A DNA stretch of 37,459 nucleotides from a virus. The position numbers and the translations under genes are program-made. The notes under the pieces were generated by a model. It was not told where the DNA came from. It did not search any database and was given only the letters and a program-made list of their open reading frames with translations. The stretch covers positions 1 through 37,459 of the IMG/VR virus record IMGVR_UViG_3300044859_001178; one strand, 5' to 3'. Within the stretch, counting starts at the first letter, position 1. Each line of letters opens with the position of its first letter. Of the stretch, positions 8,311-14,014 are shown in pieces.

Positions 8311-8517
8311 ATGAAACCACAACCCCACCGCAACATGGCGCAGGTCTACACCGCCGCCGCATCACGCCGGCGCCGGATGCTGCGCGACGCCAAGAGCGAA
8401 GCCGCGCACTGGTACAAGAACAATCCGGACGACGGGCCGGGCGGGTGCATGTGCATCCTGTTTATCTCGATCGTGGCCGTCATCGTCTATGCGTCACTGT
8501 TCTTTTGCTGGATATGA
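8311..8517 (+). CDS. Small membrane protein
   Basis: 68 residues. A basic N-terminal half (SRRRRMLRDAKSE) is followed by a C-terminal membrane span (CMCILFISIVAVIVYASLFF). The start is preceded by ACCCAAT-ATG, the same start context as four minus-strand genes. Its stop overlaps the next ATG (ATGA). Could be an early host-takeover or superinfection-exclusion protein; unproven. Confidence 0.6.
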   Translation: MKPQPHRNMAQVYTAAASRRRRMLRDAKSEAAHWYKNNPDDGPGGCMCILFISIVAVIVYASLFFCWI

Positions 8518-8699
8518 GGCGGTACGTGTACCACAACAAACGATTCAAGGTCGTCATTCTCACGACTACAGGGCGCATCCTGACCAAGGAATACGCAGCC
8601 ATCAACGGCGGAGCAGCACGCAAGAAGGCGCTAATGCCAAACGATGTCGAAAGGATTTTAGCAGTCGAAGAAATACACGAACAACACCAACCAAAATGA
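8514..8699 (+). CDS. Small basic protein, unknown
   Basis: 61 residues starting MRRYVYHNKRFKVVILTTTG at the ATG overlapping the preceding TGA. A short beta-type N-terminus (RFKVVILTTTGRILTKEY) is followed by a helix (ARKKALMPNDVERILAVEE). No family was recognised. Coupled on both sides by ATGA overlaps. Confidence 0.55.
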   Translation: MRRYVYHNKRFKVVILTTTGRILTKEYAAINGGAARKKALMPNDVERILAVEEIHEQHQPK

Positions 8700-9052
8700 A
8701 ACACTACAAAGCAAGCGTACAAACAGAGAGCGGCGCCGTCATCAACCTGACCGTCAAATCACCCGACGAGCGGCTGGCGCTCGCATCGGTCAAGCGCAAA
8801 GACGGCATCTTTCGGGTGCTCTCGATTGCCGAGTGCCCGGCGCCGGCTAGTATGGCCACTGCAAACAAGAGGTTCTTTGTCGTCCTGGCCAAAAACATGG
8901 CGGGCAACCACACGGAGATCTTTGTATCGGCTACGTCCCAGAGCAACGTCCGCACCAAGATGGAGATGCACAGCCAATGTGCGCAGATCGTCCGCATCAC
9001 TGAGACGTGCGAGAGCGACTGGCTCAACCGCAAACAGAAAACTTTGGTCTAA
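8696..9052 (+). CDS. Hypothetical early protein
   Basis: 118 residues. Two similar beta-rich halves may be a duplication: residues 1-45 (YKASVQTESGAVINLTVKSPDERLALA...) and 58-110 (FFVVLAKNMAGNHTEIFVSATSQSNVRTK...). The start ATG overlaps the upstream TGA and follows the A/C-rich leader AACACCAACCAAA. No domain was recognised. It is the last gene before the first pentamer array. Confidence 0.55.
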   Translation: MKHYKASVQTESGAVINLTVKSPDERLALASVKRKDGIFRVLSIAECPAPASMATANKRFFVVLAKNMAGNHTEIFVSATSQSNVRTKMEMHSQCAQIVRITETCESDWLNRKQKTLV

Positions 9053-9154
9053 TCGGTGAGAGGACCTTAACGCCAAGGGGGAACAAACCTCCTATATTGC
9101 GAGCGACCCGGCGCTCTGGCTATCCGCCGACCGGGAATAATTTTGGGAACGCTT

Positions 9155-9265
9155 GGAATTTGGCGGGGCAGGGCACGGCCCGGCGCGGCTTGAGCCTGGC
9201 AAGGAATATGGCGGGGCGAGGCTTGGCCCGGCAGGGCCTGGCGCGGCACGAGCAAGGAACTTGGG
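9155..9265 (+). repeat. G-rich pentamer tandem array A (two units)
   Basis: Two units of 48 and 53 nt plus a half unit. Each begins GGAATNTGGC (9155, 9203; then GGAACTTGGG at 9256), continues as phased pentamers NNGGC, and ends in NNGAGC. The two lengths differ by exactly one pentamer. It lies in the 279-nt gene-free stretch between 9052 and the ATG at 9332, directly before the A/C-rich leader of the next gene. The remaining sequence at 9053-9154 holds nothing I recognise. Confidence 0.85.
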
Positions 9266-9331
9266 CTGGCGTCACAACCAGCAAACACACACACACACGG
9301 AACACGGTAACAACACAACAACACTAAAAAC

Positions 9332-10000
9332 ATGTATCAGAAAAACTACGCAGTCACACTCACAGGAGCCACAGACCTCTTGATGCACAGAGACAACATC
9401 GACTTTGGCGCCAAGACACGCGCATGGCAGAAAGATCCTGCTAACAAAAAAATGTCAGTGGCCGGAGACGACCGCTCGCCCGCATGGAGCTGGCTCTCGT
9501 GCTTGTACACGTCCGGCGGGCAGGTCGTCATCGACAGCGACAACATCATGTCGATGCTGCGCGACGGCGGAAAGAAGTGCTCGGCGCCGACAGGCCGGGG
9601 CTCGATGAAGGCCCAAACGCAGTCAGGCATCATCTGCAATGAGATCGGCTGGCCGATCACCCTGGCCGATGGCCGCAACATCGACAGCAACGCGCTACTT
9701 GCCATGGTCAAGGAGAGCGAGTTTGAAGAGCATGAGAAGGCGGCACAGGAAGCGGGCTTCGTGCTTTTCGTGAAGCGTGCTCGGGTCGGCACATCCAAAC
9801 ACGTCCGTGTTCGTCCGCGCTTCTCCAACTGGTCAGCCAGCGGAACGCTCACTGTGGTCGATCCAAGCATCACGCAGGAGATGTTGCAGCACATCCTGAC
9901 CTTTGCTGGATGCTTCTGCGGGGTGGGCGATTGGCGGCCATCCTCACCGACACCCGGCCAGTTCGGGCGCTTCACCGCAACCATCACGAAACTTCCTTAA
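9332..10000 (+). CDS. Conserved phage-type protein of unknown function between two arrays
   Basis: 222 residues, read from the ATG after an A/C-rich leader. Recognisable blocks are TDLLMHRDNIDF (about 10-21), AGDDRSPAWSWLSCLY (about 45-60), FVKRARVGTSKHVRVRPRF (about 148-166) and GVGDWRPSSP.PGQFGRF near the C-terminus. From memory, similar blocks occur in uncharacterised phage early proteins. The Gly-rich end is loosely reminiscent of RAMP-type RNA-binding folds, but I would not assign it. A G-rich pentamer array lies upstream (9155-9265) and another downstream (10489-10856), so a nucleic-acid-binding role is a fair guess. Confidence 0.6.
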   Translation: MYQKNYAVTLTGATDLLMHRDNIDFGAKTRAWQKDPANKKMSVAGDDRSPAWSWLSCLYTSGGQVVIDSDNIMSMLRDGGKKCSAPTGRGSMKAQTQSGIICNEIGWPITLADGRNIDSNALLAMVKESEFEEHEKAAQEAGFVLFVKRARVGTSKHVRVRPRFSNWSASGTLTVVDPSITQEMLQHILTFAGCFCGVGDWRPSSPTPGQFGRFTATITKLP

Positions 10001-10011
10001 CCACTACCCAC

Positions 10012-10440
10012 ATGACCCTAGTCACAGGCATTCCCACGAAGATCGACGTAAACAAGTTGATGGATGCGATCAAGCCACTACAGGAAGGAGACCTTTTCTC
10101 TTACGACTCGATCGCCGAGACCATTGGTGTTCAGCGCACCAACAAACGCTTCCAGTCCGTTATGGGTGCATTCCGCAACCGCTTGATGCGAGAACGCAAC
10201 ATCTATCTCGTGTGTGAACCACGCGAAGGATACCGCTTGGCCGATCCGGACCGCCGCATTACGGTGGCCGCCAACAAGGTCACCTACGGCAAGCGCATGA
10301 TTTTCCGGGCGAGCAGTCTGGCAATGACAACAGACACCAACCGCCTGACCGGAGAGAACCGCAAGCTGCAACAGCATCTGGCAACGCTGCCAATCCGCAT
10401 GAAGCTGGCCGCATTGACCGCACCAAAGGAGATCGACTAA
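10012..10440 (+). CDS. Putative HTH DNA-binding protein
   Basis: 142 residues. Residues about 20-75 (EGDLFSYDSIAETIGVQRTN...FQSVMGAFRNRLMRERNIYLV) resemble a winged-helix DNA-binding domain found in small phage proteins, followed by a wing-like CEPREGYRLADPDR. The C-terminal part is basic and helical. The ATG at 10012 follows the leader CCACTACCCAC. It ends just before pentamer array B and could be its binding protein; that is inference from position only. Confidence 0.55.
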   Translation: MTLVTGIPTKIDVNKLMDAIKPLQEGDLFSYDSIAETIGVQRTNKRFQSVMGAFRNRLMRERNIYLVCEPREGYRLADPDRRITVAANKVTYGKRMIFRASSLAMTTDTNRLTGENRKLQQHLATLPIRMKLAALTAPKEID

Positions 10441-10488
10441 AATGACAAGCCCGGAGGCATTATTCGGAGCGGTGCCTTTCGGGCGCGT

Positions 10489-10856
10489 GGATTTTGGCGT
10501 GGCGGGGCGCGGCTTCGCACGGCGGGGCATGGCCGGGCATGGGCGAGGCGAGGAATTTGGCCTAGCGAGGCACGGCGGGGCAAGGCAAGGCCAGTCGTGG
10601 CGCGAGCGAGGCATGGATTGTGGCGAAGCACGGCGAGCCTTGGCAAGGCCCGGCGAGGCAAGAGCAAGGCATGGAACACGGCAAGGCAGCGTTGGGCACG
10701 GCAGGACTGGGCACGAGCGAGGCTTGGCATGGAATGTGGCGAGTCCGGGCAGGGCACGGCACGGCGCGGCCTGGCATGAGCGGGGCAGGGAATATGGCAA
10801 GGATCGGCACGGCGCGGCTGGGCGCGGCATGAGCGATGCTCGGCAAGGAACAAGGG
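10489..10856 (+). repeat. G-rich pentamer tandem array B (six units)
   Basis: Six head-to-tail units start at 10489, 10552, 10615, 10673, 10731 and 10789, with lengths 63, 63, 58, 58, 58 and 58 nt, then a terminal half unit at 10847. Each unit is GGAATNTGGC-like, then 4-7 pentamers NNGGC, then NNGAGC and a short tail (GAGGCAT). GG recurs every 5 nt on the plus strand, giving repeated GG-N3-GG runs. The 58-nt period is not a multiple of 3, so this is not a protein repeat. It fills most of the gene-free stretch 10441-10894. Confidence 0.9.
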
Positions 10857-10894
10857 CGGGCACATCCGCAAGCACAACAAACCAACACAACAAC

Positions 10895-11113
10895 ATGGAC
10901 AGCGAATCACTACACTCCAACGCACTCATGAACTACGCCGGGCTACTTTACTCGGCATATATGCGCGAAGCACGCGCGCACCACAACATGACCACACCTA
11001 CCTGGGCGGACTTTGTGTGCGACCCGCTTAACAAGATCAGCGTCTTTTGCTGGGTCGAGGTGGCGCGGATTGCTCTGAAGATCGAGACGGAGGTGCGAGA
11101 TGCGCAGCTATGA
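10895..11113 (+). CDS. Small early protein after array B
   Basis: 72 residues starting MDSESLHSNALMNYAGLLY. The frame is open far upstream through the G-rich array, but the ATG at 10895 follows a typical A/C-rich leader (AACCAACACAACAAC) and begins normal protein composition, so I place the start there. A helical, mixed-charge protein with no known domain. Its stop overlaps the next ATG (ATGA). Confidence 0.6.
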   Translation: MDSESLHSNALMNYAGLLYSAYMREARAHHNMTTPTWADFVCDPLNKISVFCWVEVARIALKIETEVRDAQL

Positions 11114-11289
11114 GCGACCAACCCCAACCCCAGACGTGCAGCGATTGCGTGAACTTTTGGAAAAGTGACGCTTCTCCACTCGGTAGATGCACTGTCCCGC
11201 TTCCTTGGTGGGCCGACCACGCGCTGGAGCCGCTGAACCGGAAAGGCGATGAGGAGGAGTTCTGCGAATGCTTCGAGCCAAAACCATGA
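11110..11289 (+). CDS. Small Cys-cluster (zinc-binding-like) protein
   Basis: 59 residues with CSDCVNFW near the N-terminus, GRCTVP in the middle, and FCECFE at the end. The spacing of Cys residues suggests a small zinc-binding or disulphide-knot fold. It resembles the start of the protein at 12485 (CVTCKFWSPDDEHK..GWC), so the two are probably related. Coupled to both neighbours by ATGA overlaps. Function unknown. Confidence 0.6.
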   Translation: MSDQPQPQTCSDCVNFWKSDASPLGRCTVPLPWWADHALEPLNRKGDEEEFCECFEPKP

Positions 11290-11480
11290 CCACAGCAACA
11301 CCACGCACTGATGCCGTCTGGAAAGCAAACACCGACATCGAAGGCTGTATAACCAACATCGAGCCGATTTACGTTGAGATGACCAAGATGGAAAGCGAGA
11401 TCAGCTTTTTGCGCTTCCGGTTGCTAGTGTTGCAATGCAAGACCGGACCGGCGACGACTCAGAAATACGCACTTTACTAG
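11286..11480 (+). CDS. Small TPRTDA-type phage protein
   Basis: 64 residues beginning MTTATPRTDAVWKANTD. TPRTDAV followed by a helical or coiled-coil region is a recurrent signature in tiny phage early proteins of unknown function. The helix EMTKMESEISFLRFRLLVLQ could form a coiled coil. The start overlaps the upstream TGA (ATGA). Confidence 0.6.
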   Translation: MTTATPRTDAVWKANTDIEGCITNIEPIYVEMTKMESEISFLRFRLLVLQCKTGPATTQKYALY

Positions 11481-11482
11481 CC

Positions 11483-11680
11483 ATGAAAAAATACGCATTA
11501 ACCCCACGCACCTTGGCTGTGTACGAAGAATTTGTAGCTACAGACCGCAAGTTTAGTAAGGCTGACGGAACCTACGACGGCCTTAAAATCTGGTGTGTCA
11601 TGGAACAACTAGAGCACGAAAACATTTCTCTTCGAGCACTTCTAAAAGAAGCTCTATCTAAAATCCCGCATGACGACTAA
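11483..11680 (+). CDS. Small helical early protein
   Basis: 65 residues starting MKKYALTPRTLAVYEEFVATD, 2 nt after the preceding TAG. TPRT near the start and a helical C-terminus (MEQLEHENISLRALLKEAL) recall the previous gene, so a shared origin is possible. No domain assigned. It overlaps the next gene by 11 nt. Confidence 0.55.
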   Translation: MKKYALTPRTLAVYEEFVATDRKFSKADGTYDGLKIWCVMEQLEHENISLRALLKEALSKIPHDD

Positions 11681-11876: not shown

Positions 11877-12488
11877 ATGAACACAACCACAGAACACCCA
11901 TTCACGCCGTTCCCGAAGATGGCCCGCTTGCAACGCGAAGTCATCATCACCGAGAAGATCGACGGCACCAACGCGCAGATCTACATCACGGACGACGGCA
12001 GAATGTTGACCGGCAGCCGTACCCGGTGGATCACTCCCGAGGACGACAATTTTGGATTCGCCGCTTGGGCACGAGACCACAAGGACGAGCTGATGCAGCT
12101 CGGACCGGGGCATCACTTTGGTGAGTGGTGGGGTCGAGGCATCCAGCGCAACTACGGCCTCGACGAGCGCCGCTTCAGCCTGTTCAACGTGGCCCGCTGG
12201 TGCCTGCATGGTGAGACACCGAAGCCGATACCGACCGCTGACCCGCGCATCGTTAAAATGCAGGACGTGCTCCCGGCCTGCTGCCACGTAGTCCCGATCC
12301 TAAGGCGCGGAATCAATATCACAACAATGGCCGACTCCGCATTACATGAGCTAAGTGAGCGAGGCAGCGTAGCCGCGCCCGGATTCATGCACCCAGAAGG
12401 CATCGTGGTGTTTCATACCGCCGGGAACGTCGGATTCAAAATGACCTTGGACAACGACGGAGTTCCAAAATCCTCTTTGAAATCATGA
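11877..12488 (+). CDS. RNA ligase family protein
   Basis: 203 residues with nucleotidyltransferase-superfamily motifs in order: motif I TEKIDGTNAQ with the predicted adenylated Lys27, GSRTRW at 46-51, motif III-like FGEWWG at 81-86, motif IV EGIV around 174-177, and motif V-like FKM at 187-189. This matches a minimal RNA ligase (Rnl2-like) catalytic core that would join RNA ends using ATP. No separate C-terminal domain is present. The start follows the leader ACAATCACAACC, and the stop overlaps the next ATG. Substrate unknown; tRNA repair is one option. Confidence 0.8.
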   Translation: MNTTTEHPFTPFPKMARLQREVIITEKIDGTNAQIYITDDGRMLTGSRTRWITPEDDNFGFAAWARDHKDELMQLGPGHHFGEWWGRGIQRNYGLDERRFSLFNVARWCLHGETPKPIPTADPRIVKMQDVLPACCHVVPILRRGINITTMADSALHELSERGSVAAPGFMHPEGIVVFHTAGNVGFKMTLDNDGVPKSSLKS

Positions 12489-13140: not shown

Positions 13141-13343
13141 ACTGGCAACCATTTGAAACCGCGCCGCAAGACAGGCAGTTCCTCGGAGCATGGGGATCAA
13201 CCGAAGGAGAAATACATGGCTACGACGTTTATAAATACATCGGAAACGGAGTCTATGAATCGATGAACGCTAGTGATGATCGGCTCCCCACCTACTTCTA
13301 CAAAATCTTCGGCTGGATGGACATCCCAAAATTTGATCTATAA
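13137..13343 (+). CDS. DUF551-like small protein
   Basis: 68 residues starting MNWQPFETAPQDRQFLGAW and ending FYKIFGWMDIPKF. The WQP-ETAP-D start and the terminal W-P pattern match the DUF551-type proteins common in phages. The start overlaps the upstream TGA and the stop overlaps the DHFR start (TAATG). Function unknown in the family. Confidence 0.65.
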   Translation: MNWQPFETAPQDRQFLGAWGSTEGEIHGYDVYKYIGNGVYESMNASDDRLPTYFYKIFGWMDIPKFDL

Positions 13344-14014
13344 TGAAAACCACCTACAACGCAATCGTCGCCATCGACATACAAAATCGCATTGGCCGCA
13401 ACGGCAAACTTCCCTGGAGCAGTCCGGCGGACATGCGGCACTTTGCCAGCCGCACCAGATACGCAACCGTCTTGATGGGCCGCAAGACCTTTGATTCTCT
13501 GCCTAAGCTGCTAGAGTATCGTCACCACGTGGTTCTAAGCAGAGACGTAAGACCAAACAGCAAAGACGTGACCTTTGTCACGGGCACAGAGGGCGCGCAG
13601 ACTGCCTGTGCGCGCAGGGGCGGAAACGTCTGGGTCATTGGTGGCGCTGAGATCTACCGGCAATTCCTTCCGCTGTGCGAGTCCATTGTCGTCACGCACA
13701 TCCCTCACTGCTTTAACACGCCGCACGAGTCGGACGTGTTCATGCCGGAGTGGGAGGACCAGTTTACTTATGGTGTTTCCGAGAAGCACGATTCATTGCG
13801 ACTCGTGCGCTACTGGCGCGGCCAAAGCGTGGAGGACAAAGTGATTGAGCAGATTCGGGCGCGACAGGCAGCCGGCGCTTTGAAGTACGGCACCACAATG
13901 CGGCGTGACGACCTGAGCGTGGGCGATTGGATGCAGCACGCTAAAGAGGAGATGCTGGATGCTGCAATTTACTTGCAGAAGTTGCAAGACGTTCAGGCTC
14001 AGCTTAAGCAATAG
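13343..14014 (+). CDS. Dihydrofolate reductase with MazG-like C-terminal extension
   Basis: 223 residues. Residues 1-155 are a DHFR: AIVAID, GRNGKLPWSSPAD with predicted catalytic Asp30, MGRKTFDSLP (45-54) and VIGGAEIYRQFLP (98-110). It would reduce dihydrofolate with NADPH in support of thymidylate synthesis. Residues about 163-223 (EQIRARQAAGALKYGTT...DWMQHAKEEMLDAAIYLQKL) resemble the EAExxxD-type core of phage MazG-like pyrophosphohydrolases, so two nucleotide-pool functions appear fused. No thymidylate synthase is seen nearby. The start overlaps the upstream stop (TAATG). Confidence 0.88.
   Translation: MKTTYNAIVAIDIQNRIGRNGKLPWSSPADMRHFASRTRYATVLMGRKTFDSLPKLLEYRHHVVLSRDVRPNSKDVTFVTGTEGAQTACARRGGNVWVIGGAEIYRQFLPLCESIVVTHIPHCFNTPHESDVFMPEWEDQFTYGVSEKHDSLRLVRYWRGQSVEDKVIEQIRARQAAGALKYGTTMRRDDLSVGDWMQHAKEEMLDAAIYLQKLQDVQAQLKQ

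What the first reader, a model, noticed from the sequence alone, without database searches (positions are those of the whole stretch)
10489..10856. Tandem array built from NNGGC pentamers in units of 58 and 63 nt
Six units (63, 63, 58, 58, 58, 58 nt) each start with a GGAATNTGGC-type core, continue as phased pentamers NNGGC, and end with NNGAGC. Unit lengths differ by exactly one pentamer, so the array is hierarchical: pentamers within units within an array. GG recurs every 5 nt only on the plus strand, giving many GG-N3-GG-N3-GG-N3-GG runs, a two-tetrad G-quadruplex pattern in both DNA and transcript. The 58-nt period rotates the reading frame, so it is not coding. Possible roles: R-loop-primed replication origin, RNA structure or sponge, or protein-binding iterons. 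I do not know a described element of this type.
Basis: partly seen in the sequence, partly recalled or inferred. Interest (0 to 1): 0.85.

Follow-up and report, generated by a model that had tools for sequence, protein, structure and literature searches.

The report
Phage VIPR guide-RNA repeat array
The repeat array is a set of guide RNAs belonging to VIPR, a phage-encoded, CRISPR-like system reported in a 2026 preprint, in which the two variable letters of each five-letter repeat spell out a DNA target, most likely in a rival phage.

Summary
The array is real and far beyond chance: the pattern (GGCNN)x3-GGC occurs 18 times in the window against 0.04 expected, all on the + strand. It is not an unknown element. 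It is the downstream vrRNA array of a VIPR locus (Viral Interference Programmable Repeat; preprint PMC13142463, 2026).

I reached this from the sequence first. Of 130 loci, nearly all fetched by the GGCNN pattern, 93 encode one protein family, that of window ORF 9332-10000. Loci fetched only by that protein carry a same-strand GGYNN array within 2 kb in 200 of 240 cases. The protein folds like Cas7/Csm3 RAMP subunits and matches the solved SUSP1 Vipr protein (36pp, E=4e-40). The next gene (10012-10440) is homologous to the second gene of the SUSP1 VIPR locus, taken to be vap1.

The locus reads: array 1 (9155-9255, two units), vipr, vap, array 2 (10489-10846, six units). GGY is scaffold and NN is the guide, read with a one-base skip. 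Between close relatives vipr is 91-94% identical while the arrays differ about as much as random NN would make them.

No reliable target was found for the window's guides. Three sibling records keep an intact array but lack vipr and vap. Verdict: new member of a known, very recent kind.

The parts
9053..9154 (+). leader of array 1, after the stop of the upstream gene
   Evidence: 77-97% identical in L003, L004, L007 and L008; the left flank CGGGAATAATTTTGGGAACGCTT is shared by the relatives
9155..9202 (+). array 1, vrRNA unit 1 (48 nt); NN letters TT GG AG AC CC GC TT [hexamer] CT AA
   Evidence: GGCNN runs at 9162-9189
9203..9255 (+). array 1, vrRNA unit 2 (53 nt); NN letters AT GG GA TT CC AG CT GC AC [hexamer] AA
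   Evidence: GGCNN runs at 9210-9247
9256..9282 (+). terminal tail of array 1, hairpin GCTGG-CGTCACAA-CCAGC
   Evidence: conserved in L003, L004 and L007; appears in the fold of the whole array
9332..10000 (+). vipr gene: RAMP (Cas7/Csm3-like) protein, 222 aa, phrog_4652
   Evidence: (pLDDT 89)
10012..10440 (+). vap gene, homologous to the second gene of the SUSP1 VIPR locus (vap1); phrog_5926; longer ORF 9910-10440
   Evidence: (E=3e-12)
10449..10488 (+). hairpin leader of array 2
   Evidence: predicted stem GCCCGGAGGCAT/GGTGCCTTTCGGGC, -22.3 kcal/mol for 10440-10500; sequence kept in L003, L004, L007
10489..10551 (+). array 2, vrRNA unit 1 (63 nt); NN TT GT GG GC TT AC GG AT CG AT [hexamer] GA GA
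10552..10614 (+). array 2, vrRNA unit 2 (63 nt); NN TT CT GA AC GG AA AA CA GT GC [hexamer] GA AT
10615..10672 (+). array 2, vrRNA unit 3 (58 nt); NN GT GA AC GA TT AA CC GA AA [hexamer] AA AT
10673..10730 (+). array 2, vrRNA unit 4 (58 nt); NN AC AA AG TG AC AG TG AC [hexamer] GA TT AT
10731..10788 (+). array 2, vrRNA unit 5 (58 nt); NN GT GA CG AG AC AC GC CT AT [hexamer] GG AG
10789..10846 (+). array 2, vrRNA unit 6 (58 nt); NN AT AA TC AC GC TG GC AT [hexamer] GA TC AA
10847..10872 (+). terminal tail of array 2 (GGAACAAGGGCGGGCACATCCGCAAG)
   Evidence: same sequence closes array 2 in L003 and L004, and near-identically (GGAACATGGGCGGGCACATCCGCAAG) in L007; it also closes the single array of L005, L006 and L008
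10895..11113 (+). next gene downstream (72 aa, MDSESLHSNALMNYAG...), bounds the array; not part of the system
   Evidence: conserved in L004, L007 and L008

Best explanation
The interval is the downstream vrRNA array of a VIPR locus laid out as vrRNA array 1 - vipr - vap - vrRNA array 2. The array is transcribed with the operon; each 58- or 63-nt unit is one guide RNA. Vipr, a RAMP protein, binds along the RNA and holds the GGY triplets as scaffold, while the NN pairs remain free to read double-stranded DNA with a one-base skip (NNxNNx...). The bound complex blocks transcription of the target, most likely a gene of a competing phage or prophage; the Vap protein assists. Shown here: the arrays, the gene family, its coupling to the arrays, its fold, homology of the two genes to the SUSP1 pair, and fast turnover of NN. 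Taken from the preprint: vrRNA expression, the ribonucleoprotein, the one-base skip rule and repression. Inferred: that this particular locus is active, and what it targets.
For: 93 of 130 loci (120 fetched by the GGCNN pattern, 6 by the GGAATNTGGC pattern, 3 annotated phage regions, and the window) encode one homologue of ORF 9332-10000. In these, arrays lie on the gene's strand 212:4. Conversely, 200 of 240 loci fetched by protein only have a same-strand GG(C/T)NN array within 2 kb; arrays 427 on the gene's strand against 1 on the other. AlphaFold model pLDDT 89; best PDB fold matches are all type VII and type III CRISPR backbone subunits. Profile match to 36pp_D 'SUSP1 Vipr protein' E=4.2e-40; single-sequence E=1.3e-10. 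Second gene homologous to the SUSP1 gene next to vipr, E=3e-12. Preprint defines VIPR by exactly these parts. Arrays between relatives are 73-83% identical while vipr is 91-94%; identity near 70% is what fixed GGC with random NN would give. Family-wide, one-base-skip decoding gives 5 guides with a one-mismatch target, against 0-1 in each of five controls; four of the five sites checked have the skip at the codon wobble position.
Against: No convincing target for the window's own guides: three exact scans of viral contigs returned 4, 17 and 4 hits, near or below chance, and the best ones (L518, L496) are not significant. No tail structure could be shown for each unit, only hairpins at the array ends, unlike the separate tailed vrRNAs of SUSP1. 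No expression data. The W clade sits on a long branch away from SUSP1. Three sibling genomes keep the array without vipr.
Confidence: 0.92

Rival explanations
1. Binding-site array for an RNA-binding protein that only regulates its own operon, in the manner of TRAP sites (triplets spaced by two free bases): NN would be mere spacer and the Vipr-like protein an autoregulator or packaging factor, not a guided DNA binder.
For: Triplet plus two-base spacing, strand bias and adjacency to the binding protein's gene fit equally well.
Against: The protein is homologous to a Vipr shown in the preprint to be guided by NN. One-base-skip decoding of NN gives an excess of near-perfect targets over permuted and reversed guides. 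Array number and unit division are not needed for autoregulation.
Confidence: 0.05
2. G-quadruplex or R-loop element, for example a replication origin.
For: GG recurs every five bases on one strand.
Against: The base after GG is C or T throughout the family and steps are fixed at five, which a quadruplex does not require; arrays occur in phages of very different kinds next to one gene family; several arrays can occur in one genome.
Confidence: 0.01
3. Coding repeat: the 223-aa ORF 10442-11113.
For: The frame is open through the array.
Against: GGCNN repeats seldom hold stops in any frame, and four other frames are long there too. Array lengths put the array out of frame with the downstream gene in L007. 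PHROG search finds no family.
Confidence: 0.01
4. Simple slippage microsatellite without function.
For: Bacterial genomes do hold pure GGCNN microsatellites.
Against: Those have a single NN repeated (entropy near zero), whereas here NN is diverse while GGC is kept; coupling to one gene family.
Confidence: 0.005

Closest known systems
VIPR systems (Viral Interference Programmable Repeat), preprint PMC13142463, 2026; SUSP1 locus, type II
   Same: RAMP protein Vipr, second gene homologous to that of SUSP1, GGY/NN arrays on both sides of the gene pair, one upstream and several downstream units, phage-encoded
   Different: 26% protein identity to SUSP1 Vipr; units here are joined head to tail at 58 or 63 nt (48-53 nt in array 1) with a GGA(A/T)(T/C) boundary and an NNGRGC hexamer, without a visible tail per unit; mostly GGC where SUSP1 has mostly GGT; three siblings hold arrays without vipr. 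Whether these traits match the staggered arrays of the preprint's fig. S18 could not be checked.
Cas7/Csm3 backbone subunits of type III and type VII CRISPR effectors
   Same: Predicted fold and glycine-rich loop; a protein that would line up along a guide RNA
   Different: No CRISPR array; single RAMP gene; guide letters interrupted by GGY
TRAP (trp RNA-binding attenuation protein) sites
   Same: Triplets separated by two free bases (from general knowledge)
   Different: Other triplet, unrelated protein fold, and NN carries information here

Membership tests
VIPR system | Vipr protein of the ancestral RAMP family | tested here: met
   Cas7/Csm3-type fold, 36pp SUSP1 Vipr E=4.2e-40
VIPR system | vrRNA of alternating GGY/NN motifs, about 9-16 repeats | tested here: met
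   9 to 12 NN pairs per unit, GGY mostly GGC
VIPR system | vrRNAs in the intergenic stretches around vipr | tested here: met
   array 1 ends 76 nt before vipr, array 2 starts 48 nt after vap
VIPR system | Accessory gene vap (vap1 in SUSP1-type loci) | tested here: met
   second gene homologous to the SUSP1 gene following vipr, E=3e-12; taken as vap1 from its position in the SUSP1 record
VIPR system | NN hypervariable, GGY conserved | tested here: met
VIPR system | Target recognition by NN with a one-base skip | tested here: inconclusive
   Window guides: no significant target. Family as a whole: modest excess for one-base skip
VIPR system | vrRNA with a structured 3' tail | tested here: inconclusive
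   hairpin at the end of array 1, weaker one at array 2; none per unit
VIPR system | vrRNA expressed and bound by Vipr | not testable with these tools
   needs RNA sequencing and pull-down
VIPR type II (SUSP1 type) | Vipr phylogeny with SUSP1 | tested here: inconclusive
   a 24-row clade (96/94) holds both, but the window's six-row clade is on a long branch; the preprint's type alignments were not available
CRISPR array | Identical repeats of about 25-40 nt with unique spacers | tested here: not met
   5-nt repeats, no constant long repeat

The most novel reading that the evidence does not exclude
vrRNA arrays can live without their own vipr. Three sibling records (L005 and L006, which look like one phage, and L008) have one intact GGY/NN array bounded by the left flank of the window's array 1 and the right flank of its array 2, with no vipr or vap anywhere in the records. 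Such orphan arrays may act in trans through the Vipr of a co-infecting relative, or as decoys that occupy a rival's Vipr; the vipr-vap pair would then be a cassette gained or lost by recombination between arrays.
Probability: 0.3. Interest if true: 0.7.

Novelty: new member of a known kind. Interest (0 to 1): 0.5.

Why it matters
VIPR was reported only in 2026 and is proposed to be older than CRISPR. This locus adds a divergent lineage (window, L003, L004, L007 and kin) with compact head-to-tail units, and its eight guides can be decoded. The pattern and protein searches here show independently, and on a larger set of phages, that GGY/NN arrays and Vipr go together and lie on one strand. The sibling set with and without vipr is a natural comparison for asking how guides are gained, replaced and used.

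Tried and rejected
Coding repeat, microsatellite, G-quadruplex/R-loop origin and TRAP-like autoregulation: see rivals. Blastn of other arrays against phage records gave nothing: (L017) no match; one search used wrong coordinates (reverse-complement numbering) and says nothing. Targets of the window's guides: three exact one-base-skip scans of viral contigs; extension of the hits and codon phase gave no clear target. L496 matches 19 of 20 letters of unit 1 of array 2, and the related unit of L004 matches 18 of 20 there, with the skip at the wobble position, but about this many such hits are expected by chance after selecting on 16 letters. L518 matches all 18 pre-hexamer letters of unit 5, also not significant. 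Sibling genomes held no target. A first family-wide target test was blurred by arrays matching arrays; it was repeated with arrays masked and with permuted and reversed guides. Rfam found nothing in 8500-11500 or in eight related loci, so hammerhead-interspersed arrays were not seen. Control triplets GC(C/T) and GC(G/A) overlap GGC arrays by construction and were not used as controls; CG and other triplets gave about zero. The host is unknown: the nearest named terminase is that of a Verrucomicrobia phage at 24% identity.

Full report
Observation. Four phased GGC triplets occur 18 times in the window against 0.04 in shuffles, all on the + strand. A second array of two units lies at 9155-9255.

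Relatives. Six viral contigs share the flanks but not the array contents: pentamer number and NN letters change freely while GGC stays. Similar arrays lie in Mycobacterium phages of genus Cheoctovirus and in Gordonia phage Ecliptus. A scan for nine phased GGC triplets in viral contigs returned 120 stretches and was cut off there. In these, NN is close to random; the replacement of GGC is chiefly GGT. Arrays often begin within about 20 nt after a stop codon and on the strand of the neighbouring gene. In bacterial genomes the same pattern is mostly pure microsatellite with one repeated NN.

The gene. Window ORF 9332-10000 (phrog_4652) has one homologue in 93 of 130 loci, 126 of which came in through array patterns, 3 through similarity of the array DNA, and one of which is the window itself; arrays lie on its strand 212 to 4. 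The reverse test used protein queries only: 72 of 80, 71 of 80 and 57 of 80 loci from three subfamilies carry a same-strand array within 2 kb, and arrays lie 427 to 1 on the gene's strand. A few loci occur in both sets, so the two tests are not fully independent.

Fold. The family ends in AGxxxGxGxxRPxxxGRFxV, a RAMP-like glycine-rich loop. The AlphaFold model has pLDDT 89.3 and pTM 0.86. The best PDB matches are type VII and type III CRISPR backbone subunits, E down to 3e-6 (TM-scores are moderate, 0.4-0.5). A profile search of PDB sequences gave 36pp_D, 'SUSP1 Vipr protein', E=4.2e-40.

Literature. The preprint PMC13142463 describes VIPR: a phage-encoded RAMP protein, an accessory gene vap, and vrRNAs of GGY/NN repeats whose NN letters bind double-stranded DNA with a one-base skip, repressing transcription of competing phages. 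All parts that can be checked by sequence are present in the window. The second gene is homologous to the gene after vipr in phage SUSP1, and a vap1-like gene follows vipr in 84 of 339 loci, 61 of them in the subfamily of SUSP1. On a tree the window's Vipr forms a six-row clade on a long branch, inside a clade of 24 with SUSP1 (96/94). A SUSP1-type (type II) assignment is therefore likely but not proven.

Guide turnover. Against L003, L004 and L007 the vipr gene is 91-94% and vap 89-94% identical, while the aligned parts of the arrays are 73-83%. With GGC fixed and NN random one expects about 70%, so NN is nearly saturated.

Targets. Across 881 guides and 5.4 million positions with arrays masked, one-base-skip decoding found five guides with a one-mismatch target; skip 0, 2 and 3 and permuted or reversed guides gave 0 or 1 each, apart from one low-complexity guide that matched perfectly under several rules. 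Four of the five have the skip at the wobble position of a sense ORF. One guide, from L275, matches the vipr gene of other phages at codons for R-E-D-M-V-R-V-G-M. This supports the published rule in independent data, modestly. For the window's own guides nothing significant was found.

Orphan arrays. G035 and G036 (L005, L006; apparently one phage) and G037 (L008) align with the window over most of its length in circularly permuted order, with a single array but no vipr or vap by profile or tblastn. The single array carries the left flank of array 1 and the right flank of array 2. G035 and G037 are about 74% identical over aligned parts, yet both arrays are intact. Either vipr-vap was lost twice recently by recombination between arrays, or gained once in the window's lineage, with arrays kept by selection without vipr in cis. 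These cannot be told apart here.

Shown here: the array and its significance, the gene coupling, the fold, the homologies, NN turnover, the vipr-less siblings. From the preprint: expression, ribonucleoprotein, skip rule, repression. Inferred: activity and targets of this locus.

Noticed in passing
L005, L006, L008 (whole records G035, G036, G037): Sibling phages with one intact GGY/NN array and no vipr or vap in the record; the array joins the left flank of array 1 to the right flank of array 2.
   Followed up: partly
L275:3572-3614 and L254:2861, L089:3216: A guide in one phage matches, with a one-base skip and one mismatch, the vipr gene of other phages at the conserved motif REDMVRVG, skip at wobble.
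   Followed up: partly
L009, L010 (Mycobacterium phages Donkeykong, Mattes), L011 (Gordonia phage Ecliptus): Well-known actinobacteriophages carry a vipr homologue annotated as hypothetical next to a GGYNN array.
   Followed up: partly
L142, L148, L204, L235, L238: Bacterial genome contigs (Fibrobacteres, Patescibacteria, Alphaproteobacteria and Bradyrhizobiaceae MAGs, Dokdonella fugitiva) with a vipr homologue and a diverse-NN array; perhaps prophages.
   Followed up: no
L025, L088, L026, L064, L048, L101: Arrays divided by short repeated linkers, some with clear hairpins (L026: CTGCATCTC-TTCG-GAGGTGCAG) and some that resemble a tRNA T arm (GGTTCGANYCC in L025, L088). Rfam has no family for them.
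   Followed up: partly
35 of 37 records without a vipr match, e.g. L018, L073, L077, L096: GGYNN arrays in records where the vipr profile found nothing; some are fragments or low-complexity, others may hold a more distant Vipr.
   Followed up: partly
window 11877-12488 and 13343-14014: The same phage encodes an RNA ligase-like and a dihydrofolate reductase-like protein.
   Followed up: no
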